Below, one piece after another: positions 32,373 through 44,295 of a stretch of 64,000 nucleotides of DNA. The notes below the pieces were generated by a model. It was not told the DNA's origin, made no database searches, and was given only the letters and a program-made list of their open reading frames with translations. Where the stretch lies: contig CASDXP010000003.1 in NCBI GenBank assembly GCA_949285455.1, positions 1 through 64,000 on the forward strand. The letters run 5' to 3'. This DNA comes from an uncultured bacterium. GTDB lineage: Bacteria; Bacillota_I; Bacilli_A; RFN20; CAG-826. Positions within the stretch are counted from its first letter, which is position 1; every line of letters begins with the position of its first letter. A program made the translations under genes and the position numbers.

Positions 32373-33620
32373 TTAGATGATAACGTCTTTTGTTTTTCTT
32401 CCTTTGCCACGACCTGGCTTAAAGACAACTTCACCTTTAGAAATTGCCCCGACAGGACAGACTAAGGAACAAAGTAAACAGCCGACGCACTTATCAGTGT
32501 TACAAGTTGGTCTTCTCGTCTTCTTATCCCATTCCATAGCTTGGTGAGAACCATCGTAACAAGAGATGTAACATCTTCCACAACCAACACATTTATCATC
32601 ATCTATTTTTGGATAAATTTTGAAGTCACGGTCAAGTTCTTCCGCAGGAATAACATTCTTATTAGCTCTTCCTACTAAGTCGGAAAGACGATCGACACCT
32701 TTTTCTTCCATATAGTGCATGAGACCATTACATAAATCATCGATGATACGATAACCATATTGCATGATGGCAGTCGTCACTTGCAAAGTGGAAGCACCAA
32801 GTAAAATAAATTCTGCCGCATCGCGCCAAGTCTCGATACCGCCAATACCAGAAATTGGAATATCTCGCGTTTTAGGATTATCTCTCAATTGTTGAATAAA
32901 TCTTAAGGCCACTGGTTTAATAGCCTTACCAGAATAACCAGAAATCGAAGATTTACCATTGACGATAGGTAGCCCCACTTCTTTATCTAAGTCGACGTTT
33001 AAAATAGATTTGATCGTGTTGATAGCAGAGATTGCATCCGCTCCACCTTCGATACTTGCAAGTGCGACTTCGCACATATCAGTAATATTAGGTGTCATCT
33101 TAGCGATGACTGGCAATTTAGTCGCACTCTTCACAGCTTTACAATATTGACGACATAGATCAGGATTTTGTCCGATCGCCGAACCAAGATGTGTATCGGT
33201 CATTTGAGGACAGGAGAAATTAAGTTCGATCATATCCGCTCCTGCATCTTCGACTTGTTTAGCTAAAATTTTCCAATCTTCATCGCTTCCCGCCATGATA
33301 GAAGCGACTAAAACACAATCGGGGAATTCTTCTTTTAGACGTCTAATATCTCTTAGATCATCTTCTAAAGGATGTTCTGTCAATTGTTCCATATTTTTAA
33401 AGCCGACGAAAGGTGTCGCTTCTTTTTGTAACATATCGTAACGTGGCGAACATTCATCGCATGGATCTTTAATTAAAGTTTTATAGACGATTCCGCCCCA
33501 ACCTGATCTAAAAGCTTTCGCGCACATGTCGTAACAATTGCCGACAGGCGAAGAAGAAAGCATGAAAGGGTTTTTAAATTTCACACCGAGGAATTCGATA
33601 CTTAAATCTTTCTTAATCAT
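32373..33620 (-). CDS. preA: NAD-dependent dihydropyrimidine dehydrogenase subunit PreA
   Basis: The 415-residue protein has a dihydroorotate-dehydrogenase-like FMN barrel ([66 protein letters not shown]). Two C-terminal 4Fe-4S motifs follow ([22 protein letters not shown]). With PreT it reduces uracil or thymine with NADH, or the reverse. The loop that carries the catalytic Cys in mammalian dihydropyrimidine dehydrogenase reads GSAIGQ here, without Cys; I recall the E. coli PreA loop also lacks it. The start overlaps the preT stop by one base (TAATG). Confidence 0.92.
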
Positions 33621-34849
33621 TATTTTGTCCTCGCTTTCGTTAAATAGGCGTCGATAAAGTAAGATGCCTCTTTTGCGGTTTTGACCGCTCCGACGACTGT
33701 TTTATCACCCTTAGCGATATCGCCGACGACAAACACATTAGAGTCACCGACACGGTAGTTATTCGCGACCACTTCACCTAGATTATAATCTAAACCAAAT
33801 TGTGGTCTTACCACTTGACCAACCGCTAAGATAATATGTTTTGGTTCGATAGAAATGACACTAGGCAAATGACGATGTTTAAATGTCACTACTTTTCCAT
33901 CGTAACTCATTGGAACATAACCATCGATGATGGATACGTTTAATGCTCTAGCTTCATTCAATTCTTTTTGGCTGGCTCTAAATTCATTAAATTCTTCATA
34001 AACAACATCGATGACACGCGGTGTACCGATACGTTTTAAAGTCGTAACGACATCCATCGCTACGTCCCCGCCACCGATGACTAAAGTATCACTATAGACG
34101 TCGATATCGCCTCTTTCATTTTTGACTCTTCTTAAGAATTGTGTCGCAAGTTCAACGTGTGCATCATCTTCAAACATCGGTAAGGTCTTCGCTAATTCGT
34201 AACCAGTTCCAACGACGACCGCGTCATATTCTTCCTTTAATTTTTTAAATTCATCATCGTCCACTGGATGATTCACTAAATTTTTAACACCTAAATCTAA
34301 GATACGCTTAATTTCTAAATCTAAGACATCATTTGGTAAACGATATGAAGGAATGCCATATCTTAGATAACCACCAAGTTTTTCATCTTTTTCAAAGATT
34401 GTCACTTGATAACCTTTCATACGCAATAAAGCCGCAAGTTCTAAACCACCAGGACCAGAACCAATGATGGCAACCTTTTGTTTTAATTCCACTTCTGGCT
34501 TCCTTAAAATTTCCATCTTTAAATTAGCTTCAAAATCAGTGATGTAACGTTGAATCTTGCCAATTTCAATTGGTTTATCAATACCACTTCTTGAACAACC
34601 TAATTTACAATATTTTTCTTGTGGACACACTCTTGCGCATATGGCCCCTAAGGCGTTATTTTCTCTAATAATTTCCGCTGCGCCTTTTTCATTTAAAAAA
34701 CGCAAAGCACGAATAAATCTAGCGGGGTCTGTTCCAGCGGGACAATTCTTAGAGCATGGGGCATCATGACAAAGCAAGCACCTACTTGCTTCTTCGATAG
34801 CTAAAAGAGGAGTGTAAGCCTCTTCCGCTTCTTTCAAATAATCTTTCAT
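33620..34849 (-). CDS. preT: NAD-dependent dihydropyrimidine dehydrogenase subunit PreT
   Basis: The 409-residue flavoprotein has the Cys-rich N-terminal domain ([31 protein letters not shown]), an FAD-binding motif ([20 protein letters not shown]) and a pyridine-nucleotide motif ([12 protein letters not shown]). It is the electron-input partner of PreA, whose gene begins at its stop codon. The ATG has an AAGGAG ribosome binding site. No dihydropyrimidinase or later pathway gene lies in the window. Confidence 0.9.
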
Positions 34850-34920
34850 GGGGATAGTTCTCCTTGTAATAGATATTATGCCATAAAAGATTAGTTTATT
34901 TAATTAAAAGTTAAATGTAC

Positions 34921-35481
34921 TTAGTTTGATGAATTACTAGGGTTAAGTGGAATACTTATAGAATAATAAGGACTACTTGGATAATTAAAAGCAAATGAAG
35001 CGATGAACGCTGCCGCCATAGAAACGACCATGAAGCCAACGAAGACGATGATGACTGGCCCCATAGGATCCCTATCAGTAGCCATATTGAACGCAAAATA
35101 AAGTAAAAAAATTACAACGTATCCAGCAAGATAAATTAAAGGTACATACATATTTGAAAAATCAGGCATCCTATAAAAAAACACATAAAATAACACCGTG
35201 CCTATAAACGCTGAAGCAAAAAATATTACAATAGCGAAAAAGAAATATAGAACCCAAAGCATATTTTCCCCGGAGCGTTTTAAATAAATAGAAATTCCAA
35301 CATGCGTTGCTAAGAAAAGCACTCCAATAACAATAAGTATTATCATTGAATTCTCACCATCATTATACGGATGAAGGATGACTGGGCAAATAAAATAAAA
35401 AATTAATGAGATGAGTGACAAAACAATTATAATCTTTAATTTTCTATTTTCTAAAATAGATCCAATAAGTCCTGATAACAT
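34921..35481 (-). CDS. Small membrane protein of unknown function, paralogue A
   Basis: I do not recognise this 186-residue protein. It has four or five hydrophobic segments and ends in a short polar Ser/Pro/Asn tail. It is related to the next gene (35559-36038): both begin with a short amphipathic stretch ending ENxK, have similar segment spacing and share a late VxxxFxxxxxxxAxxIG/A-like helix. The preceding 70 bp contain a duplicated fragment of the gene at 36041-36730. It is the last gene of the seven-gene operon. Confidence 0.6.
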   Translation of the reverse strand: MLSGLIGSILENRKLKIIIVLSLISLIFYFICPVILHPYNDGENSMIILIVIGVLFLATHVGISIYLKRSGENMLWVLYFFFAIVIFFASAFIGTVLFYVFFYRMPDFSNMYVPLIYLAGYVVIFLLYFAFNMATDRDPMGPVIIVFVGFMVVSMAAAFIASFAFNYPSSPYYSISIPLNPSNSSN

Positions 35482-35487
35482 AAAAAA

Positions 35488-35547
35488 TTAATATTCTTCC
35501 TTCCTATAGGCATCTCTTTCAATTAATAGAAGATGGATTTTCTTACA
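35488..35547 (-). repeat. Duplicated 3' end of the upstream coiled-coil membrane gene
   Basis: These 60 bp match 36041-36100 at 54 positions without gaps; 33 bases in a row are identical. Read in frame they encode the same C-terminal phrase (CKKIHLL...ERDAYRKEEY) and a TAA stop, followed like the original by a small-membrane-protein start. Confidence 0.9.
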
Positions 35548-35558
35548 ATTTTATTCAT

Positions 35559-36038
35559 CTAAAAAACCGGTAATGGAAAACCAACAGTAAATAATAATGA
35601 GTAAGCAAGGCCAATAAAAATGGCGGCAGTTAAGAAGAAAATAATGAACGTTGGAATTAAATTTTCTTGTGTAGAAAAGTGATTAACCACAACGTAAGAG
35701 ATAAGAACTATACCCATCGCGCCTAGCGAAATAAGTGGAAGATAAACTGGATCGATGGGTAAAAAAGTAGTTAAAAACATAGAGAGATAAAAGCTAAGGA
35801 GACAGCCGACAAGGACAAAAGCGAGCCACTTCTTTTCAAGACCAAATCTAATTATGTAAAAAACAGTCAATAGAAGAACTAAAATGAATCCAGCAGAAAG
35901 AATTATTATACCTAGATGAAAGTGCGATGAAATGATAACACCACTACAAAAGTATGATATGATTATTGTCCATAAAATAAATAATAAAAGATGGATTTTC
36001 TTATTTTCAATTATTGTACTAATAAGTTCTGAAATCAC
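35559..36038 (-). CDS. Small membrane protein of unknown function, paralogue B
   Basis: This 159-residue protein is not recognised. It has four to five membrane segments and few charged residues, and is related to the protein at 34921-35481. The start codon is GTG at 36038, two bases after the TAA of the gene before it, with GGAAGGAAG as ribosome binding site inside that gene's end. Translation is therefore coupled. The function is probably tied to the SPFH-protein operon in which it lies. Confidence 0.6.
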   Translation of the reverse strand: MISELISTIIENKKIHLLLFILWTIIISYFCSGVIISSHFHLGIIILSAGFILVLLLTVFYIIRFGLEKKWLAFVLVGCLLSFYLSMFLTTFLPIDPVYLPLISLGAMGIVLISYVVVNHFSTQENLIPTFIIFFLTAAIFIGLAYSLLFTVGFPLPVF

Positions 36039-36040
36039 AA

Positions 36041-36730
36041 TTAATATTCTTCCTTCCTATAGGCATCTCTTTCTACGAGAAGAAGATGAATTTTCTTACA
36101 AAGTTTAACTATTTCATCGTTATTTTGTTCACTAACAGCGAGCATTAATTCATCGATAGAAGCATCGATCTTACTATCGTAAGTTTTCGTGCCTAAAGCT
36201 TCCATGCTCGGTAAGGAGTGAATTTCATCATGAATATTTTGTAGTTGTCTTCTTACATTTCTATCTTCCACTACTTCGATAAGCCTAGCAATACGACCTG
36301 CATAATTTTTGATGACTCTAGCTTCTTTGTGATCAATTCTTTCTTGCTCCGCACTTTTTTGATTAACGATATAAAGTGTTAAGAAAATAATTATATATAA
36401 GCCTAACAATACCGCGTTCGTGGCAATGGAAGGAACAATATCAATTAATTCCAAGCATAAAAATACAACATTTGCGATAAAAGACGATAAGAAGTAGAAA
36501 ACACTTACTAGATAATGAGTCATTTGATAAATATGATTTCCCATCGTATTCGTCTTAAGTAATGGAATTAAAATCAAAGATAGATATGAAACGTGAATAA
36601 AAGCATACGCGACCCAAGTTGAATCCGTGTGTGTCACACCAGCAATCAAAAAGAAACAGAGGTTGAAGACGATGACAAATATTAAATCTAAAACGATCGT
36701 CGCAATTAATAATTTATTTTTTAGTTTCAT
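36041..36730 (-). CDS. Four-helix membrane protein with C-terminal coiled-coil domain
   Basis: The 229-residue protein has four membrane segments (about 8-28, 40-60, 78-98 and 105-122). A charged helical domain follows (about 128-229, with RIARLIEVVEDRNVRRQLQN and repeated Asp/Glu/Lys) that should lie in the cytoplasm. I know no family for it. It overlaps the SPFH gene by ATGA, so the two products are made together and may form a complex. Its last 60 bp are copied at 35488-35547. Confidence 0.6.
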   Translation of the reverse strand: MKLKNKLLIATIVLDLIFVIVFNLCFFLIAGVTHTDSTWVAYAFIHVSYLSLILIPLLKTNTMGNHIYQMTHYLVSVFYFLSSFIANVVFLCLELIDIVPSIATNAVLLGLYIIIFLTLYIVNQKSAEQERIDHKEARVIKNYAGRIARLIEVVEDRNVRRQLQNIHDEIHSLPSMEALGTKTYDSKIDASIDELMLAVSEQNNDEIVKLCKKIHLLLVERDAYRKEEY

Positions 36731-37782
36731 AATTTTGCTAAGAGTTCCTTTCTTTTCGCGTCATATTCATCTTTATCGATCAAACCTTGATCAAACAAAG
36801 TTTTTAAAGTTTGAAGTTTAGAAGCGACATCTTCATTTCCTTTAGGTTTATCTAAACCCATATTATTAGAGTTATTATTTTGCATCGCATTAAACATACC
36901 TAGACCCGCGCCTAGGCCAACTCCGATACCGGCTCCGCCACCGCTACCTTCATTTTCTGCAGCCGCTTTTAAAATTTCGGCCTGTCTTTGTCTTTGCCAA
37001 TTGTCACCTAATGTTTCAAAGACAGCTTTATCTGCCTGAGCGTGTCTTAATTTTGCAATCGTTTCGATGCCCACTTCATCATATTTTCTTCTTAGTTCAT
37101 CATCTTCAATATCTAAAGCGGAAACGACGAAACGCACGCAAGTTAAACCATATTCTTTTAAGATTTCATCCATGTAAGGTTCGATAATTTCACTAAATTC
37201 ATCAAGCCTTGCATCGATACCTAAAAGTTCCATATTCGATTCTAATAAAGCTCTTGCAATAACTGATTTAATTTTCGATTGGAATTGGCTAATAAAATAT
37301 TTATTAAGTCCCACTTCCGTTTCAAAATCCATATTATTACCAATCAATTTTTCTAAGAATAATTGAGGATTTTTAATTTGCACTTTATAAGCTCCACGAC
37401 ATTTAATTTTCGTCGCGATACCTAATAGTTTATCTCTTACTTGGATAGGTGAATCCGTTCCCCATTTTATTTCGACACTATGGGTAGTTCGAACAAAATA
37501 GACGCGGCAATTAAAAATCGAAACGCCACCAGAAAATAAATTTCTTAAACTAGTGATGAAAGGATAATTTTTCGTCGAAAGTTTATAAGTACCATTAGAA
37601 AATACTTGCTTAATTATACCTCCATCGACAAAGATAGCTTCTTCGCCAGGTTGCACAATTAAAGTAGAATTCGTATTGAAATCTTCGCTTGGATATTTAA
37701 AGATTAAAAAATCTGGTGAAGATTCATTTTTAATGACCTCAGTCCAAGTTTTTTTCACTTCACTGCGTTTGAATAAAGACAT
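36727..37782 (-). CDS. SPFH-domain protein with C-terminal SHOCT domain (YdjI-like)
   Basis: The 351-residue protein matches the YdjI/virion-core-like SPFH family. It has an N-terminal beta-rich segment (LIVQPGEEAIFVDGG near 40), an SPFH domain (about 60-250), a stretch of glycines (GSGGGAGIGVGLGAGLG, about 283-299) and a C-terminal SHOCT helix pair (LKTLFDQGLIDKDEYDAKRK). Bacterial relatives gather at the membrane with PspA/Lia-type envelope stress systems. It sits in the middle of the operon and is the best clue to its role, which I infer to be membrane integrity or scaffolding. A GGAGG ribosome binding site precedes it. Confidence 0.8.
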   Translation of the reverse strand: MSLFKRSEVKKTWTEVIKNESSPDFLIFKYPSEDFNTNSTLIVQPGEEAIFVDGGIIKQVFSNGTYKLSTKNYPFITSLRNLFSGGVSIFNCRVYFVRTTHSVEIKWGTDSPIQVRDKLLGIATKIKCRGAYKVQIKNPQLFLEKLIGNNMDFETEVGLNKYFISQFQSKIKSVIARALLESNMELLGIDARLDEFSEIIEPYMDEILKEYGLTCVRFVVSALDIEDDELRRKYDEVGIETIAKLRHAQADKAVFETLGDNWQRQRQAEILKAAAENEGSGGGAGIGVGLGAGLGMFNAMQNNNSNNMGLDKPKGNEDVASKLQTLKTLFDQGLIDKDEYDAKRKELLAKL

Positions 37783-37801
37783 GATGTTTTCCTCCTAAAT
37801 T

Positions 37802-38275
37802 TTAAGGATAATCGATGCGACATATTTGTCCGCGGCAACGGAAATAAGTGCGATGAACAATTTTTATTAAAGCGATGAAGACGCCATATTTTTTTATTGC
37901 TAATAAGGCGTATTCTGAACAAGTTGGCTTAAAATTACATTTTCTACGCGTTTCATCTTTCGCATAATGCTGATAAAGATGGACGAGTCCTACGATGATA
38001 GATGGGGATAAAATTAAGAAAGTATAACCACCGATGATGAGGATGAGGATGAAGATACTTAAACAAGCATTTTCATCTAATAATTCGCTAAGAGCGGGAC
38101 TTAAACAATCGCTGTTCTTCAACAAGAAATATAATCCCACTCCTAGCGACGATATGAGAAACAAGAACGTGATAATATAACAAATACATTTTGTAAGCGT
38201 AGTGTTAGGTCTACTTAGAGGATGATTTAAAACATAATTGAAGACGTAACCATGTTCTTGTTTATCAAACACCAT
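37802..38275 (-). CDS. YidD-domain protein with added N-terminal membrane region
   Basis: The C-terminal third (about 103-157) carries the YidD motif, CNFKPTCSEYALLAIKKYG, followed by the second cysteine-containing segment FRCRGQICRIDYP. YidD helps membrane protein insertion near YidC and is usually about 70-85 residues. Here 100 residues with two membrane helices (about 25-50 and 68-95) precede it. This layout may anchor the domain. It lies between the unknown gene at 38281 and the SPFH gene, in one operon. No good ribosome binding site is seen, so translation is probably coupled. Confidence 0.75.
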   Translation of the reverse strand: MVFDKQEHGYVFNYVLNHPLSRPNTTLTKCICYIITFLFLISSLGVGLYFLLKNSDCLSPALSELLDENACLSIFILILIIGGYTFLILSPSIIVGLVHLYQHYAKDETRRKCNFKPTCSEYALLAIKKYGVFIALIKIVHRTYFRCRGQICRIDYP

Positions 38276-38280
38276 AGAAA

Positions 38281-38922
38281 TTATTTAGCTTTTCTTTCTC
38301 TCACTAAGGCCTTGAGACCTTGAATCGATCTTTCAGAAGCTTCAGGATTGGTGACAGAAATCGATAATTTATCACCTGGAACGACGATCATAAATTGATT
38401 GTAATCCATGAGAATTCTTTGATAAGTATTCGTCCTCAAACCACGTCTCTTTAAAACTTCACGTTCTTCCGAACCAGTTTCCGTATAAATGCTTACGATA
38501 TCTTTGTAGAAATATTCTGCAGTTTTAACACTCTTACCATCTTCATCAAGATTAGTCGTCCATTGATAAAGGAATAATTCTTCGTCAGTGAAGAAAACCC
38601 AGGTCACTTGATAAGAAGAAGAACGCCACAATAAATCTTTACCAAGTTTAGTAAAGATATTACGGTCGCTAAAATTGTAACCTTCAAAAGAAATCGCTTT
38701 AACTTTGCTCACTTGTGTGGGATCGAGACCAATCTTTCTTAAGCCTTCGCTCTTATGATCGATCGAATGAACGACTTTACTCACAAGTTCATCATATTTT
38801 TTGTCGTTAAGTTTACCACCAAAACAACCACCAGTGCCTAAGAAATAGTCGATGACTTTCTTTTGTTCTTTGCTGCGACCAGCTTTTAAATTCTTTTCTT
38901 TTTGACTAGCAAATAAGCCCAT
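38281..38922 (-). CDS. Conserved-looking cytoplasmic protein of unknown function
   Basis: This 213-residue protein has no signal peptide or membrane helix and no motif I recognise. The second half (about 95-213) alternates short beta-like strands (WVFFTDEELFLYQWTTN, RILMDYNQFMIVVPGDK), suggesting a PH-like fold that could bind membranes. This is only a reading of pattern. The ATG has a GGAGG ribosome binding site. It is the second gene of the operon and probably works with the SPFH protein. Confidence 0.55.
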   Translation of the reverse strand: MGLFASQKEKNLKAGRSKEQKKVIDYFLGTGGCFGGKLNDKKYDELVSKVVHSIDHKSEGLRKIGLDPTQVSKVKAISFEGYNFSDRNIFTKLGKDLLWRSSSYQVTWVFFTDEELFLYQWTTNLDEDGKSVKTAEYFYKDIVSIYTETGSEEREVLKRRGLRTNTYQRILMDYNQFMIVVPGDKLSISVTNPEASERSIQGLKALVRERKAK

Positions 38923-38958
38923 AAATAATACCTCCTATATAGAAAAGATTTTGCTCTT

Positions 38959-39552
38959 TTAAAGCCAATTTGGTCTCGCTACTCCTAACATAGCAAATAA
39001 GGAATTGACATCCATGTCGGAGTAACCATATTCTTTCGCTTGCGATAAAGTTTCCATATAATTTGGAACCGTATTGAAATATTTTCTTTCGTAATAATCG
39101 TATTTAATGTAACTAAGTAAAACGTAATAGATACCTTTAGGAGTAATCATATTCGCCGCATTTAAATATTGTTCACATTTATCGATATCATCTTTCGTAT
39201 GTAAAAAAGGTATCTTCCCTTTCAAAGTCGCAATCGCCGCGGCAAAGAAGATATCCCCATTATCGAAATTATCTTGCATAGCAATTTCAAAACAAGCGAG
39301 AGCTTTATCGAAAAGTTTAAGTTTTAAATAGCACATACCCATCGAAGCATTCACGTCTTTATCATCAGGATGTGCATCTAAAGCTTTCTTATAGCTTCCA
39401 GCGTATTTATTCAATAGAGGTAAGGACATATCGATGACACTATTAAAAGTGCTCACATTAATTGGTGAATGACAATATTCACATTCTTTTTGCGAAATCG
39501 ATACCGGCGCGCCGCAGCCAGGACAATTCAATTTAATAACTTCCACTGCCAT
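38959..39552 (-). CDS. Zinc-ribbon protein with TPR-like repeats, first gene of the poly-G operon
   Basis: I start this gene at the ATG at 39552 (197 residues). Longer readings run back through the promoter and are rejected. The N-terminus holds a zinc ribbon (CPGCGAPVSISQKECEYC), followed by TPR-like helices (HPDDKDVNASMGMCYLKLKL and FDKALACFEIAMQDNFDNGD). Such proteins usually act as adaptors. Its promoter contains a G9 tract (39598-39606), so expression of it and the six genes downstream could vary between cells. An AAAGG ribosome binding site lies 15 bp from the ATG, longer than usual. Confidence 0.7.
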   Translation of the reverse strand: MAVEVIKLNCPGCGAPVSISQKECEYCHSPINVSTFNSVIDMSLPLLNKYAGSYKKALDAHPDDKDVNASMGMCYLKLKLFDKALACFEIAMQDNFDNGDIFFAAAIATLKGKIPFLHTKDDIDKCEQYLNAANMITPKGIYYVLLSYIKYDYYERKYFNTVPNYMETLSQAKEYGYSDMDVNSLFAMLGVARPNWL

Positions 39553-39591
39553 ATAACAATAAAATGACCTTTCGATAAATAATTCAAAAAT

Positions 39592-39621
39592 ATAATACCC
39601 CCCCCCGTTTAATTTTGTCAA
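39592..39621 (-). promoter_or_regulatory. Promoter with poly-G spacer, candidate phase-variable switch
   Basis: On the minus strand a perfect TTGACA (39616-39621) and TATTAT (39592-39597) are separated by 18 bp, of which the last nine are G. Gain or loss of a G changes the spacing. Transcription should begin near 39585, about 33 nt before the ATG of the zinc-ribbon/TPR gene. Confidence 0.7.
39598..39606. repeat. Nine-base homopolymer (C9 on plus, G9 on minus)
   Basis: Nine consecutive C residues lie in otherwise very AT-rich intergenic DNA. Tracts of this length slip during replication in many bacteria. Confidence 0.9.
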
Positions 39622-39921
39622 CGAATTTTTTTGAACAAAGAAAAAGTCATTTGTTAACTATTTTTCATCGCTTTGACAAAACCATTCATATACAAAAAAC
39701 TAGAAGAAAATAATAATTTCTTCTCATCACTTTAATTTTCACTAAAGGAGCTAAAAAACTTATTTTCAATTTTCATTTAATTACACATTAAAATTTATAA
39801 AACTTAAAGCATTTTAATTATCATTTCTTCATTTTTCGCTCAATTAAATAATAATATTGAATAAAAATGAACCATTTTTTAATCTTTTGAATAAATTTTC
39901 TTTAATTTTAACTTGATTTTA
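39622..39921. other. AT-rich divergent intergenic region upstream of glnA
   Basis: This 300-bp space between the poly-G promoter and the glnA -10 box has no open frame with a ribosome binding site. I looked for GlnR-type TGTNA-N7-TNACA boxes and did not find a convincing one. It contains many T and A runs. Confidence 0.5.
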
Positions 39922-39927
39922 TATAAT
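39922..39927 (+). promoter_or_regulatory. Probable -10 box of glnA
   Basis: A perfect TATAAT lies 34 bp before the glnA ATG. No good -35 box is found at 16-18 bp, so an activator may be involved. Confidence 0.5.
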
Positions 39928-39961
39928 TTATCGCTAAAATTGAGCCGTGAGGTAAAAAATT

Positions 39962-41302
39962 ATGGCAAAATATACTAAGCAAGATATCTTAAATATCGCT
40001 AAAAAACAAAATGTTCAATATGTAAGATTGCAATTTTCTGACATCTTAGGGACGAATAAAGCAGTCGAAATCCCTGTCGCTAAATTAAAAGATGCCTTAG
40101 ATGATAAAATTTCTTTCGATGGTTCATCTGTCGAAGGCTTCGCGCGTATCAAAGAAGCAGATATGTACTTATCCCCTGATCGCAATACGTGGCTCATCTT
40201 AGACTTCGAAGATTTAAAATATGGTAAAGTCGCTAGACTTATCTGCGATGTTTACATGAATAATGGTAAGCCTTTTTCAGGTGATCCACGTTACATCTTA
40301 AAGAAAACATTACGTAAGATGAGAGAATTAGGTTATTCTTCATTAAATGTCGGTTTCGAACCAGAATTTTATTTATTTAAAACTGATGAGGAAGGTAAAC
40401 CTATCTTAAAACATTCGATCGATAAAGCTTCTTATTTTGACCTTTCCCCTATCGATGGAGCGGAATATGTAAGAAGAGATATCGCTCTTGCCTTAGAGCA
40501 TCTAGGTTTTGAAGTACAAACTAATCATCATGAAGTAGGCCCTGGTCAAAATGAAATCAATTTTAAATATGACGATGCTCTAACTACCGCGGACCGCATT
40601 CAAACTTTGAAGCAAGTCGTCAAAATTATCGCTGGAAAACATGGCTATTTCGCTACTTTCATGCCGAAACCAATCGAAGGTTATCCTGGCTCTGGGATGC
40701 ACGCGAATATGTCGCTCGTGGATGAAAATGGGGAAAATGTCTTTTACGATGCCAATAGCAAAGATGGTCTATCTTCAACATGCAAGAAATGGATAAGCGG
40801 CATCATCAGCCATTCTAGGCCTCTTTCTTTCATCACTAATCCGACGATCAATTCTTACAAACGCTTAGTCGCGGGTTTCGAAGCTCCTATCTACGCAAGT
40901 TGGAGTCAAGCGAATCGTTCTTCGATGATTAGAATTCCCGCACAAAGAGGTGCGGCTACGCGCACAGAAATTCGTAACGTCGATTGTATGGCTAACCCCT
41001 ACTTAGCGATTTCTTGTCTTCTTGCCGCAGGACTCGATGGCATTTTACATATCGAAGATGAAGATATCATTCCACCTATATCAGAAAACTTATTTGAATT
41101 AAGTTTAGAGGAAATTACGAAATTAGGTATAAAACGTATTCCTTCTAATCTTTACGATGCGATGAAAGAATTTAAAAAGGACACTTTCTTTAAAAATGTC
41201 CTCGGTGAACCAGTTTATTCCAAGTTGATTTATATCAAAGAACAAGCTTGGAAAAAATATTCTTTAATCGTCACACCTTTCGAATTAGAAAGATATTTAT
41301 AA
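39962..41302 (+). CDS. glnA: Glutamine synthetase type I (GSI-alpha)
   Basis: The 446-residue enzyme is of the GSI-alpha length, without the 25-residue insertion and adenylylation loop of the beta form. Active-site blocks are visible: FEPEFYLF (metal Glu), NHHEVGPGQNEINF, GSGMHANMSL, NPTINSYKRLVAGFEAP and IRIPAQRG. The C-terminus (LIVTPFELERYL) keeps the usual ending with the Arg of feedback-inhibited GSI-alpha enzymes. It makes glutamine from glutamate, ammonia and ATP. It is one of few plus-strand genes, with a GAGGT ribosome binding site, and converges on the lipoprotein array with 3 bp between the stops. Confidence 0.97.
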   Translation: MAKYTKQDILNIAKKQNVQYVRLQFSDILGTNKAVEIPVAKLKDALDDKISFDGSSVEGFARIKEADMYLSPDRNTWLILDFEDLKYGKVARLICDVYMNNGKPFSGDPRYILKKTLRKMRELGYSSLNVGFEPEFYLFKTDEEGKPILKHSIDKASYFDLSPIDGAEYVRRDIALALEHLGFEVQTNHHEVGPGQNEINFKYDDALTTADRIQTLKQVVKIIAGKHGYFATFMPKPIEGYPGSGMHANMSLVDENGENVFYDANSKDGLSSTCKKWISGIISHSRPLSFITNPTINSYKRLVAGFEAPIYASWSQANRSSMIRIPAQRGAATRTEIRNVDCMANPYLAISCLLAAGLDGILHIEDEDIIPPISENLFELSLEEITKLGIKRIPSNLYDAMKEFKKDTFFKNVLGEPVYSKLIYIKEQAWKKYSLIVTPFELERYL

Positions 41303-41305
41303 AAA

Positions 41306-42061
41306 TTAATTCATCAACACAAAATCATCTAAATTAGGTTTTTCTTGGATAGCCACCAATTGTATTTCGATGTCGCTAGAGACATTTCTTTCTGGACTTT
41401 GAATTAAAGAAGACGCAAGCGTCACTAAATTATCTTCGATGAGAATATTATAATAATCTCTTGCTTTTCCATCCGTCAGATCATAAAAGAAATATAAATC
41501 CCCACTTCCCTCGCTCGAAAGATAATAATCTAAGCGATATTGTGGTTTCAATTGTTCTTCTCCGGCTTCCAATAAGACGAAATGTTCTAACATTGGTGCG
41601 ATAATATTTTCAATCGTCGATAAAGTAAATTCTTTTACATTAGAGGCTCCCATATAATTTTCGTAAGTTTTAACATATTCATTAAAATAAGCTTTTGCCT
41701 CTTCATTATTGCTAAACTCGTAACGATAATAAGTGGCGGTTTTATCGAAACTAATTCTTGCATCGTAAAACACATTGTTTTCGACGTAGAACCATATTTC
41801 TTCAATATCGCTCGAAACTTGCGTTAAGTTATAGTAATAATAGTTATTAAAGTCGAACACTTCATTTGTTACAATTTGATAATTATTTTCGCTCGTAGTC
41901 AATTTAGAAGTGAAGGAAGGACTAACGTAAAGTGGGTTATTTAAATGCGCCTTTATATTTTCTAAAACGCGCATCATCTCACTGGCGGGTTCGCCAGTCG
42001 AAGGATGACAAGCACTTAGAAGAAGTAAAGGAAGTAAAGTTAAGGATAAATATTTTTTCAT
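41306..42061 (-). CDS. Lipoprotein of an unknown paralogous family (copy 1)
   Basis: The 251-residue protein has a lipoprotein signal (LLLLSAC, Cys18) and one domain of the family repeated in the next three genes. Shared marks are an opening helix with EN-IxxxL, a strand pattern ending in YYYYNLTQVSSD-like text, an xxWxYVExN/DxxFY motif (IWFYVENNVFYD), an EEAKAYFNEYV helix, and a late GSGDLYFFY strand. I know no function. Its start overlaps the stop of the upstream member (ATGA), so they are co-translated. Confidence 0.65.
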   Translation of the reverse strand: MKKYLSLTLLPLLLLSACHPSTGEPASEMMRVLENIKAHLNNPLYVSPSFTSKLTTSENNYQIVTNEVFDFNNYYYYNLTQVSSDIEEIWFYVENNVFYDARISFDKTATYYRYEFSNNEEAKAYFNEYVKTYENYMGASNVKEFTLSTIENIIAPMLEHFVLLEAGEEQLKPQYRLDYYLSSEGSGDLYFFYDLTDGKARDYYNILIEDNLVTLASSLIQSPERNVSSDIEIQLVAIQEKPNLDDFVLMN

Positions 42062-43428
42062 AATTCACTCACTTTCTCATACGCACTTAAATCAGGATAA
42101 ATTAAATCGAATGCACCAACTTCAATAATTGATTCGTTAACGTAATTAGAGTCATTAACTATCATCGTCTGATGAACGTAAGCTAAATAGTTATTTTCAA
42201 GTTCGATATGCATCACTAAGTCATTAGAGGTATCTTCATAAATTAAATTAAGATAGCCTTCGCCACGCGAAGTTAAACTAGATGCACTTTCTAATAAATT
42301 ACGCATCGAAGCGATAGTCATTAACGTCAAAGTATTTAAATTGTAACTAGTTTTGCCCTGCGTTACACTTTCTAATTCTAAGATATAAGTATCAAATAAT
42401 GCTCTTGCATCTTCAACACTCGCACACTCAGTCAAAGTGTAAGTATTATCTTTTATTTGTACAAAGTTTTTTCCTTCGACGTAAGCATAAGTTAGGCTAG
42501 AATCTAAACCTGTTCTTTCTTCGTAGAAGTAATAATTATCTAAATCGATCTTTTGATTTTGTGTCGTTATATCTTCGCCTAGCTTCACGAAAATATAATT
42601 CGTGTAAGCTGGTCTAGAAGTCATTCCATTTAGATAAGCTTCCATCGCATCTAATAACGCATTTGCCTTACTTACAGTAATCGGCTCTTCGATGATAAAT
42701 TCTTTAACATCCGGATATTCAAGCGGGACACCTAAAGTGAAAATTTCACTCATCTCATAATAATTATCTTCTTCATCTTGGATGATGAGACTATATTCTC
42801 TTAAATAATATTCGTTGAAGACGATATTAATTTCATCGCTAACGCCATCGTTCATTTCCTTATATTTTAAAGAAAAATTTCCATGTTCATCAAAAGATGT
42901 TGAATAAGATAATTCTTCTAAGGCTTCATAATCACTATTATTATCATTTTCAAAATCGATAATATTATTGACGATGCTTCTTGCTTCTGTTAACGCTAAT
43001 TTAGAAGCATCGACCCACGATTGTTTATAAGTTTCATCGAGCGAATCCATATAGGCCATAAATTTCGCTTGCGCGCTACTGACGTCTTCTAAATACTCGA
43101 CTGCCCCGGTTTTTTCACCCACCACGTCAATTAAATAATAAACATTCATCTCATCGACGTAGACCCATAGTTCATTTTCGATGATATTAGAGCTTTCTTT
43201 CCTCATATGAAAATAGAAATTAGAAGGATCATAACTTAATAAAATTTTACTTTCCTTTCCTTCTTCTTCAACGATAATATTTCTTGTAAAAAGAGGACTA
43301 GAAGAAACCTTAGTAAGGTAATTTTCAATATTATCTAACGCTAGTAAAGTATCTTCCGCTGAAGGAATAGGTAAACAAGATGATAACATTAACGTCGATA
43401 ACAAGAGTGGTATACATATTTTTTTCAT
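42058..43428 (-). CDS. Lipoprotein of the same family with two tandem domains (copies 2 and 3)
   Basis: The 456-residue protein has a signal ending LMLSSC (Cys18) and two tandem copies of the domain (about 25-240 and 250-456). The marker motifs appear twice: LWVYVDEMNVYYLI and LTYAYVEGKNFVQI; SSAQAKFMAYMDSL and ASVEDARALFDTYI. The doubling suggests an in-frame tandem fusion of two genes like its neighbours. It is probably exposed on the cell surface. Function and ligand are unknown. Confidence 0.65.
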   Translation of the reverse strand: MKKICIPLLLSTLMLSSCLPIPSAEDTLLALDNIENYLTKVSSSPLFTRNIIVEEEGKESKILLSYDPSNFYFHMRKESSNIIENELWVYVDEMNVYYLIDVVGEKTGAVEYLEDVSSAQAKFMAYMDSLDETYKQSWVDASKLALTEARSIVNNIIDFENDNNSDYEALEELSYSTSFDEHGNFSLKYKEMNDGVSDEINIVFNEYYLREYSLIIQDEEDNYYEMSEIFTLGVPLEYPDVKEFIIEEPITVSKANALLDAMEAYLNGMTSRPAYTNYIFVKLGEDITTQNQKIDLDNYYFYEERTGLDSSLTYAYVEGKNFVQIKDNTYTLTECASVEDARALFDTYILELESVTQGKTSYNLNTLTLMTIASMRNLLESASSLTSRGEGYLNLIYEDTSNDLVMHIELENNYLAYVHQTMIVNDSNYVNESIIEVGAFDLIYPDLSAYEKVSEL

Positions 43429-43483
43429 ACTTAAATCATCCTTAAAAAAAGACTACTCCATTATAAACTAAACCTAGATAAAA

Positions 43484-43513
43484 ATAAACGTAGCGAGCTC
43501 ATAGCCCGCTACG
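43484..43513 (-). terminator. Terminator after the third lipoprotein gene
   Basis: On the minus strand CGTAGCGGGC pairs with GCTCGCTACG (one mismatch), followed by TTTATTTTT. It separates the gene at 43543-44295 from the two-gene unit downstream. Confidence 0.8.
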
Positions 43514-43542
43514 CTAAATAGAAGGAGATTTTTAAAATTAAA

Positions 43543-44295
43543 TTATGCGCCAGTCACTAAAGTATAATCACTTAAATCTGGAATATTACGCGAAATACTT
43601 CTCACTTGGATATCGACGATTGAATCCATACTTTGCTCACCTTGCTTGGCACTAACTTTCATATGCGTAAGCCAGTAATTATCGATCCTAACTTCAACGG
43701 CTTCAGATTCTCCGCCTTGACTCATGCTAAAAGAAATAGATAAATTACCATCGCCACTCGAACCAAGATGATAAGAGATATTTATCCCTTCTGGAACTTG
43801 TCCTTCGCCAGATTCAAGTAACATACAAGTTGGTAAAATTGAAGCACCTACTTCAAGACCAGATTGAGTTAAAGCCACTAAACTCCCGCCTCCACCATTT
43901 GATTCAATGTAATCGATATACATATCAAAATTAGCTTGAGCTTCTTCTACACTCGCGCCTTCAGTAACCATATATTGTTTTTCACCTGCCAAATTTGAAA
44001 CTACATAGAAATCCGTATCATCGACGTAGATCCAGCTTTCAGATGTCGCACCATCTGAAGTTGCTTTTTGATGAATATAATAATTTGCTAAATCTACATC
44101 CACTTCAGATTTTATCGGTGATGAACCAACCGTATTAGTTTCAATATCTCCGTGATAAGCTGTTTCTTCTGCGGTCGTTAAATGAGTAGCGATATCATTA
44201 GCGATTTCCCACGCATCGGCTGCTTTAATACCAGTTCCGCCACAAGATACGAGTGCGAAAGCAGGTAATAAGGCTAATAGAGAGATTTTCTTCAT
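43543..44295 (-). CDS. Lipoprotein of the same family (copy 4)
   Basis: The 250-residue protein has a signal ending FALVSC (Cys18) followed by Gly-Gly-Thr and a single family domain. Motifs include ESWIYVDDTDFYVVS, ASVEEAQANFDMYIDY and a GSSGDGNLSISF strand. It is closest in length to copy 1. A GGAGG ribosome binding site precedes the ATG and its own terminator follows, so it is transcribed separately from copies 1-3. Function is unknown. Confidence 0.65.
   Translation of the reverse strand: MKKISLLALLPAFALVSCGGTGIKAADAWEIANDIATHLTTAEETAYHGDIETNTVGSSPIKSEVDVDLANYYIHQKATSDGATSESWIYVDDTDFYVVSNLAGEKQYMVTEGASVEEAQANFDMYIDYIESNGGGGSLVALTQSGLEVGASILPTCMLLESGEGQVPEGINISYHLGSSGDGNLSISFSMSQGGESEAVEVRIDNYWLTHMKVSAKQGEQSMDSIVDIQVRSISRNIPDLSDYTLVTGA

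What the first reader, a model, noticed from the sequence alone, without database searches (positions are those of the whole stretch)
39592..39621. Nine-G tract inside a promoter spacer: candidate phase-variable switch of a seven-gene operon
The promoter of the operon 34921-39552 reads TTGACA, 18 bp, TATTAT, and half of the spacer is a run of nine G in a region otherwise almost free of G. Slippage by one base would make the spacer 17 or 19 bp and strongly change promoter strength. Poly-G spacers of this kind switch outer-membrane genes in Neisseria (porA). No such switch is familiar to me in this lineage.
Basis: partly seen in the sequence, partly recalled or inferred. Interest (0 to 1): 0.68.

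Follow-up and report, generated by a model that had tools for sequence, protein, structure and literature searches.

The report
Slippery poly-G promoter switch, lineage-wide
A run of nine G's sits between the two contact sites of a gene promoter in an uncultured Bacilli-class bacterium, and related species carry the same promoter with 10 or 11 G's, so this is very probably a slippage-driven on/off (or volume) switch of a kind known from Neisseria that turns out to be widespread in this little-studied group.

Summary
On the minus strand the window reads TTGACA (39621-39616), an 18-bp spacer ending in nine G (39606-39598), and TATTAT (39597-39592). About 0.2 tracts of G9 or more are expected in this 1.1-Mb genome; it has five. 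The same operon in two relatives has the same promoter with G10 (spacer 19) and G11 (spacer 20). A sister species lacks the operon and has glnA directly beside preT. Across 279 genomes of the order, the motif occurs about 45 times in 20 genomes, against 0 for the reversed control. Of 47 G9+ tracts in ten genomes, 34 are promoter spacers (2% expected). Genes behind them are mostly lipoproteins, membrane proteins and acyltransferases. The window's genus lacks MutS and MutL, so slippage should go uncorrected. Poly-G spacers mostly measure 18-20 bp; ordinary promoters in these genomes measure mostly 16-18. The mechanism is porA-like, hence a new member of a known kind. Switching within a clone and its effect on expression are not shown. 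The operon resembles the B. subtilis ydjGHI membrane-stress genes.

The parts
39616..39621 (-). -35 element TTGACA
   Evidence: conserved in orthologues
39607..39615 (-). first nine bases of the spacer (AAATTAAAC); diverges between orthologues except the final C next to the tract and the first A's
   Evidence: C precedes the tract in 55/81 and 23/24 motif copies
39598..39606 (-). G9 tract, proposed slippage switch; G10 in G002, G11 in G209
39592..39597 (-). -10 element TATTAT, abutting the tract
38959..39552 (-). operon gene 1: zinc-ribbon plus TPR protein, 197 aa
   Evidence: orthologues 93% (G002) and 42% (G209)
38281..38922 (-). operon gene 2: 213 aa, no Pfam match
37802..38275 (-). operon gene 3: membrane protein with YidD domain
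   Evidence: PF01809 E=1.2e-13; TIGR00278
36727..37782 (-). operon gene 4: SPFH/Band 7 protein with C-terminal SHOCT domain
   Evidence: PF13421 E=8.2e-37, PF09851 E=2.2e-08; 97% and 28% identity to orthologues
36041..36730 (-). operon gene 5: membrane protein, 229 aa (overlaps gene 4 by 4 bp)
35559..36038 (-). operon gene 6: small membrane protein, GTG start
34921..35481 (-). operon gene 7: small membrane protein
33620..34849 (-). flanking gene: FAD/NAD(P) oxidoreductase (preT-like); same place in sister species G003 without the operon
39962..41302 (+). flanking divergent gene: glutamine synthetase-like (glnA); directly beside preT in G003
   Evidence: sequence and adjacency; name from sequence recognition, no family search

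Best explanation
The tract is the variable part of a phase-variable promoter. The replication machinery gains or loses a G at the run of nine (inferred), and with no mismatch repair detected in this genus the change persists. Each event moves the -35 and -10 boxes by one base pair, changing how well sigma-A RNA polymerase fits and so the expression of the whole downstream operon (zinc-ribbon/TPR, YidD, SPFH-SHOCT and membrane proteins). Predicted: G8-G9 (17-18 bp) high, G10 (19 bp) reduced, G11 (20 bp) low or off. The result is a mixed population for an envelope or membrane-stress module. Shown: the anatomy, its conservation with changing tract length, its recurrence in front of surface genes, and the lack of detectable MutS/MutL. 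Inferred: slippage in vivo, the expression levels, and the operon's role.
For: (1) Orthologous promoters with G9, G10 and G11 in three species, down to 42% protein identity; the TTGACA is kept while most other spacer bases differ. (2) In the order, about 45 motif copies in 20 of 279 genomes, reversed control 0 in all; in a class sample, about 69 copies in 29 of 395, control 0. (3) 34 of 47 tracts of G9+ score at least 10/12 as promoters; flank shuffles give 2.3%. (4) Most tracts precede lipoproteins, signal-peptide proteins, membrane proteins or acyltransferases. (5) Near-identical promoters in one genome differ in G count: G8 vs G9 in the G601 array and G045, G10 vs G11 in G082. (6) No MutS or MutL in four genomes of the genus at 96-99% completeness; other genomes in the same searches are positive. 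(7) Ordinary TTGACA/TATAAT promoters in four of these genomes have 16-18 bp spacers in 26 of 33 (19 at 16-17); none of the 34 poly-G promoters is at 16-17.
Against: No transcription start or expression data. Tract lengths come from metagenome assemblies, and G homopolymers are hard to sequence. Most genomes of the order lack the exact motif. MutS1 is present in half of the motif-bearing genomes in the order (10 of 20), so loss of mismatch repair is not a requirement. In some searches some ordinary promoters are orthologous copies, so that sample is not fully independent.
Confidence: 0.86

Rival explanations
1. The tract is a fixed structural spacer: poly-G gives the promoter special DNA geometry or binds a protein, and its length is not used as a switch.
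For: A C before the tract and direct contact with the -10 box are conserved, and the spacer is longer than in ordinary promoters, as if poly-G geometry shifted the optimum.
Against: Tract length differs among orthologues (G9/G10/G11) and among near-identical copies in one genome, and other tracts in this order lie inside coding sequences where only slippage makes sense.
Confidence: 0.08
2. The tract is coding: the ORF starts at TTG 39621, reads GGGGGGGGG as Gly-Gly-Gly, and slippage would cause frameshifts (translational switch).
For: The ORF 38959-39621 is open through the tract; intragenic tracts do occur elsewhere in this genome (C2:6235).
Against: G10 and G11 orthologues break that frame, protein similarity begins at the ATG, and the -35/-10 boxes recur in front of unrelated genes.
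Confidence: 0.03
3. Chance or an assembly artefact: a homopolymer that happens to lie in a promoter-like AT-rich region.
For: Promoter-like matches are as frequent as in shuffles in this region, and tracts lie near contig ends more often than expected.
Against: Recurrence at the orthologous place in two other species and about 45 copies in the order with zero reversed controls.
Confidence: 0.02

Closest known systems
Neisseria meningitidis porA promoter (poly-G between -35 and -10; PMC3639595)
   Same: Poly-G of 9-11 inside the -35/-10 spacer; one-base changes alter spacing. In porA, 10G gives about 2-fold and 9G about 13-fold less surface protein than 11G.
   Different: Class Bacilli instead of Neisseria; controls a seven-gene accessory operon instead of one porin; perfect TTGACA and near-perfect -10; longer G may weaken this promoter (predicted), whereas in porA longer is stronger over 9-11 G; no expression data here.
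Bifidobacterium breve UCC2003 G-tracts (PMC9187656)
   Same: Gut Gram-positive bacterium with slipping G-tracts; the authors mention G-tracts in promoter spacers in passing.
   Different: Their proven case is intragenic (pilin reading frame) and in Actinomycetota.
Mycoplasma homopolymer promoter switches such as M. hyorhinis vlp (poly-A spacer; from my own knowledge, not checked)
   Same: Bacilli/Mollicutes relatives, promoter-spacer homopolymer, families of surface lipoproteins.
   Different: Poly-A rather than poly-G.
Bacillus subtilis pspA-ydjGHI operon (PMC8581546)
   Same: SPFH-domain protein in one operon with membrane proteins.
   Different: No PspA gene among the seven; YidD present; poly-G sigma-A-type promoter instead of sigma-W.

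Membership tests
Promoter-spacer homopolymer phase variation (porA type) | Homopolymer tract of about 8 or more between -35 and -10 of a promoter | tested here: met
Promoter-spacer homopolymer phase variation (porA type) | Tract length differs among relatives at the same locus | tested here: met
   G9, G10, G11 in three species
Promoter-spacer homopolymer phase variation (porA type) | Tract length varies within a clone or strain population, reversibly | not testable with these tools
   one genome per species held; no reads; metagenome scans capped at 0
Promoter-spacer homopolymer phase variation (porA type) | Tract length changes expression | not testable with these tools
   needs reporters or RNA-seq
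Promoter-spacer homopolymer phase variation (porA type) | Controls surface-exposed product | tested here: inconclusive
   operon encodes several membrane proteins but no clear surface antigen; other tracts in the order do precede lipoproteins and secreted proteins
pspA-ydjGHI membrane-stress operon | SPFH-domain (YdjI-type) protein | tested here: met
   PF13421 E=8.2e-37; not compared directly with YdjI
pspA-ydjGHI membrane-stress operon | PspA encoded in the operon | tested here: not met
   no PspA family match among the seven proteins
pspA-ydjGHI membrane-stress operon | sigma-W promoter | tested here: inconclusive
   the promoter found is TTGACA/TATTAT; no separate scan for a sigma-W site was made
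Known anti-phage defence systems | Match to a PADLOC model | tested here: not met
   no match for the seven proteins

The most novel reading that the evidence does not exclude
A large part of uncultured gut Bacilli, and perhaps other gut Bacillota and Saccharibacteria, shares one standard format of phase-variable promoter (TTGACA-N8-C-G9..11-TATAAT) that independently controls many surface and envelope genes per genome. Its poly-G spacer has a different length optimum from ordinary spacers, so these promoters rest off-optimum and switch by one-base slips. This would be an unrecognised phasome in a major gut lineage.
Probability: 0.5. Interest if true: 0.75.

Novelty: new member of a known kind. 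Interest (0 to 1): 0.62.

Why it matters
It would show that uncultured, reduced-genome Bacilli diversify their envelopes by the contingency-locus strategy best known from Neisseria, Campylobacter and Helicobacter, using one recurrent promoter design. The motif is simple to search, so the switching state of many genes could be read directly from existing metagenome reads. The missing MutS/MutL in this genus, and the shifted spacer lengths, give testable questions about how slippage and promoter geometry co-evolve.

Tried and rejected
Coding-frame reading of the tract: rejected because the G10 and G11 orthologues shift the frame. Chance: rejected by zero reversed controls and orthologous conservation. 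Defence operon: no PADLOC match. Idea that poly-G promoters go with loss of mismatch repair: not supported across the order; MutS1 is present in 10 of 20 motif-bearing genomes against 62 of 259 others, the opposite of the expected direction, although the window's own genus does lack it. Phage link: only four viral contigs carry the motif, so phages are not a main carrier. Operon orthologues in more of the family: only two convincing. One family search failed on wrong coordinates and was repeated. Literature searches for such switches in RF39/Erysipelotrichia-type lineages found nothing relevant; the library holds open-licence papers only. The exact GTDB name of the window's order was not established; hits in the same class include records named Acholeplasmatales and Anaeroplasmataceae.

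Full report
OBSERVATION. On the minus strand the window reads TTGACA (39621-39616), AAATTAAAC, GGGGGGGGG (39606-39598), TATTAT (39597-39592): an 18-bp spacer, half of it G. It is the top promoter-like site of 34000-40200 (11/12), although promoter-like matches as such are at chance level there. The tract is the only run of seven or more G in the window. In the 1.106-Mb genome, 0.22 tracts of G9 or more are expected from a first-order Markov model; five exist. Seven collinear genes follow.

ORTHOLOGOUS PROMOTERS. The first operon gene has orthologues in G002 (same genus, 93%) and G209 (another genus, 42%). Both carry the same promoter layout: G002 TTGACA-9-G10-TATTAT (spacer 19), G209 TTGACA-9-G11-TATATT (spacer 20). 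The -35 box is identical in all three, the -10 region is kept or similar, most of the other spacer bases differ, and the tract is kept but never the same length. This is the central evidence. The extended ORF through the tract is ruled out because G10 and G11 change its frame and similarity starts at the ATG.

ACCESSORY CASSETTE. In sister species G003 (99% complete) glnA and preT are divergent neighbours about 265 bp apart, with no operon and no tract. So the seven-gene block with its poly-G promoter is a unit present in some species and absent in others.

A PROMOTER CLASS. TTGACA-N5..12-G7+-N0..6-TATNAT occurs about 45 times in 20 of 279 genomes of the order, about 69 times in 29 of 395 genomes sampled across the class, and in 8 of 195 of a phylum-level sample, which in practice held only genomes of the same class. 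The reversed-pattern control is zero in every one of these genomes. That scan has no matched control, so the spread outside Bacilli is less certain. In 81 parsed copies the tract touches the -10 box in 55 and is preceded by C in 55.

WHERE G9+ TRACTS LIE. In ten genomes, 34 of 47 distinct tracts score at least 10/12 as promoters with the tract in the spacer; flank-shuffled controls reach that in 2.3%. Most downstream genes have signal peptides, lipoboxes or membrane segments by simple inspection. Pfam confirms examples: MBOAT and acyltransferase-3 proteins and a collagen-like repeat protein. Some tracts are intragenic: in this genome inside the signal-peptide region of an Ig-like surface protein, and in G192 inside a DNA methylase gene followed by a type III res gene. 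Relative G601 has an array of surface-protein paralogues behind near-identical poly-G promoters, one G8 and the rest G9.

MISMATCH REPAIR. No MutS (E <= 1e-20) and no MutL (E <= 1e-5) was found in any of the four genomes of the window's genus, while other genomes and the control genomes are positive in the same searches. In the meningococcus, a mutS mutation raises porA switching (PMC3639595). Across the order the association is not simple: half of the motif-bearing genomes have MutS1.

SPACER LENGTHS. Ordinary TTGACA/TATAAT pairs in four of these genomes have spacers of 16 (15), 17 (4) and 18 (7) among 33; the 34 poly-G promoters are at 19 (16), 18 (5), 20 (4), 15 (6), 21 (2) and 14 (1), none at 16-17. 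Most poly-G promoters therefore sit off the ordinary optimum, as expected if many sampled copies are in a weak state, or if poly-G shifts the optimum. The window's 18 bp lies inside the ordinary range, so I predict this allele is on.

WHAT IT CONTROLS. Gene 1 has a zinc ribbon and TPR, gene 3 a YidD domain, gene 4 SPFH (PF13421) plus SHOCT; the others are unannotated, mostly membrane proteins by inspection. B. subtilis has an SPFH protein (YdjI) in a membrane-stress operon with membrane proteins (PMC8581546); this operon lacks PspA, so it works perhaps like it but is not filed as a member. No defence-model match.

KNOWN OR NEW. The mechanism is that of porA; promoter-spacer G-tracts were mentioned in passing in Bifidobacterium. 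My searches found no description for this part of Bacilli, but the library is incomplete. Verdict: a new member of a known kind, in a lineage where the kind seems widespread and unreported.

LIMITS. No reads, no strains of the same species, no expression data; tract lengths are from assemblies, and five of 48 tracts lie within 300 bp of a contig end against 0.8 expected, which may reflect length heterogeneity, repeats, or poly-G sequencing dropout.

Noticed in passing
L060 (G000:C2:6235-6243): G9 tract in frame inside the signal-peptide region of a large Ig-like surface protein; candidate translational on/off switch in the same genome.
   Followed up: partly
L061 (G000:C2:58801-58810): TTGTCA-9-G10-TATAAT promoter 12 bp before a 188-aa protein of unknown family; a helix-turn-helix-like ORF lies upstream.
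   Followed up: partly
L062 and L064 (G000:C3:137675, C12:7174): Two more G10 tracts before a collagen-like/List_Bact_rpt lipoprotein and a signal-anchored protein; -35 boxes less clear (TCGAAA, TTGACT).
   Followed up: partly
L063 (G000:C4:26905-26934): TTGACA...CGAGGGGGGGTATGAT before a membrane protein and a lipoprotein; an interrupted tract (GA G7) where G001 has a similar promoter with an uninterrupted G8, perhaps a locked switch.
   Followed up: partly
L259/L260 (G601:C6:8343-27066): Tandem array of surface-protein paralogues with near-identical signal peptides and near-identical poly-G promoters, one with G8 and the others G9; looks like a variable-antigen locus.
   Followed up: partly
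L255 (G192:C5:29940): G10 tract inside an N6/N4 DNA methylase gene followed by a type III res gene: a phasevarion candidate.
   Followed up: partly
G000-G003 (the window's genus): No MutS of any type at E<=1e-20 and no MutL, although most other genomes of the order have a MutS-family protein.
   Followed up: yes
order-wide G9+ tracts: Poly-G promoter spacers avoid 16-17 bp, the commonest lengths of ordinary promoters in the same genomes; possibly a geometry effect of poly-G DNA.
   Followed up: partly
contig ends of G042, G002, G008, G209 and others: Tracts lie within 300 bp of contig ends more often than expected (5 of 48 vs 0.8), which may reflect mixed tract lengths, repeats or poly-G read dropout.
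   Followed up: partly
G002 and G209, about 20-25 bp upstream of the -35 box: Both share CGGGAACTCAA-like sequence upstream of the promoter; the window lacks it. Possible regulator site.
   Followed up: no
window 41306-44295: Three tandem lipoprotein-like genes of similar build (251, 456 and 250 aa; the 456-aa one looks like an internal duplication) beside glnA.
   Followed up: no
L270 (IMG/VR contig): A contig classed as viral carries TTGACA-...-G11-TATAAT 36 bp before a 284-aa membrane protein.
   Followed up: no
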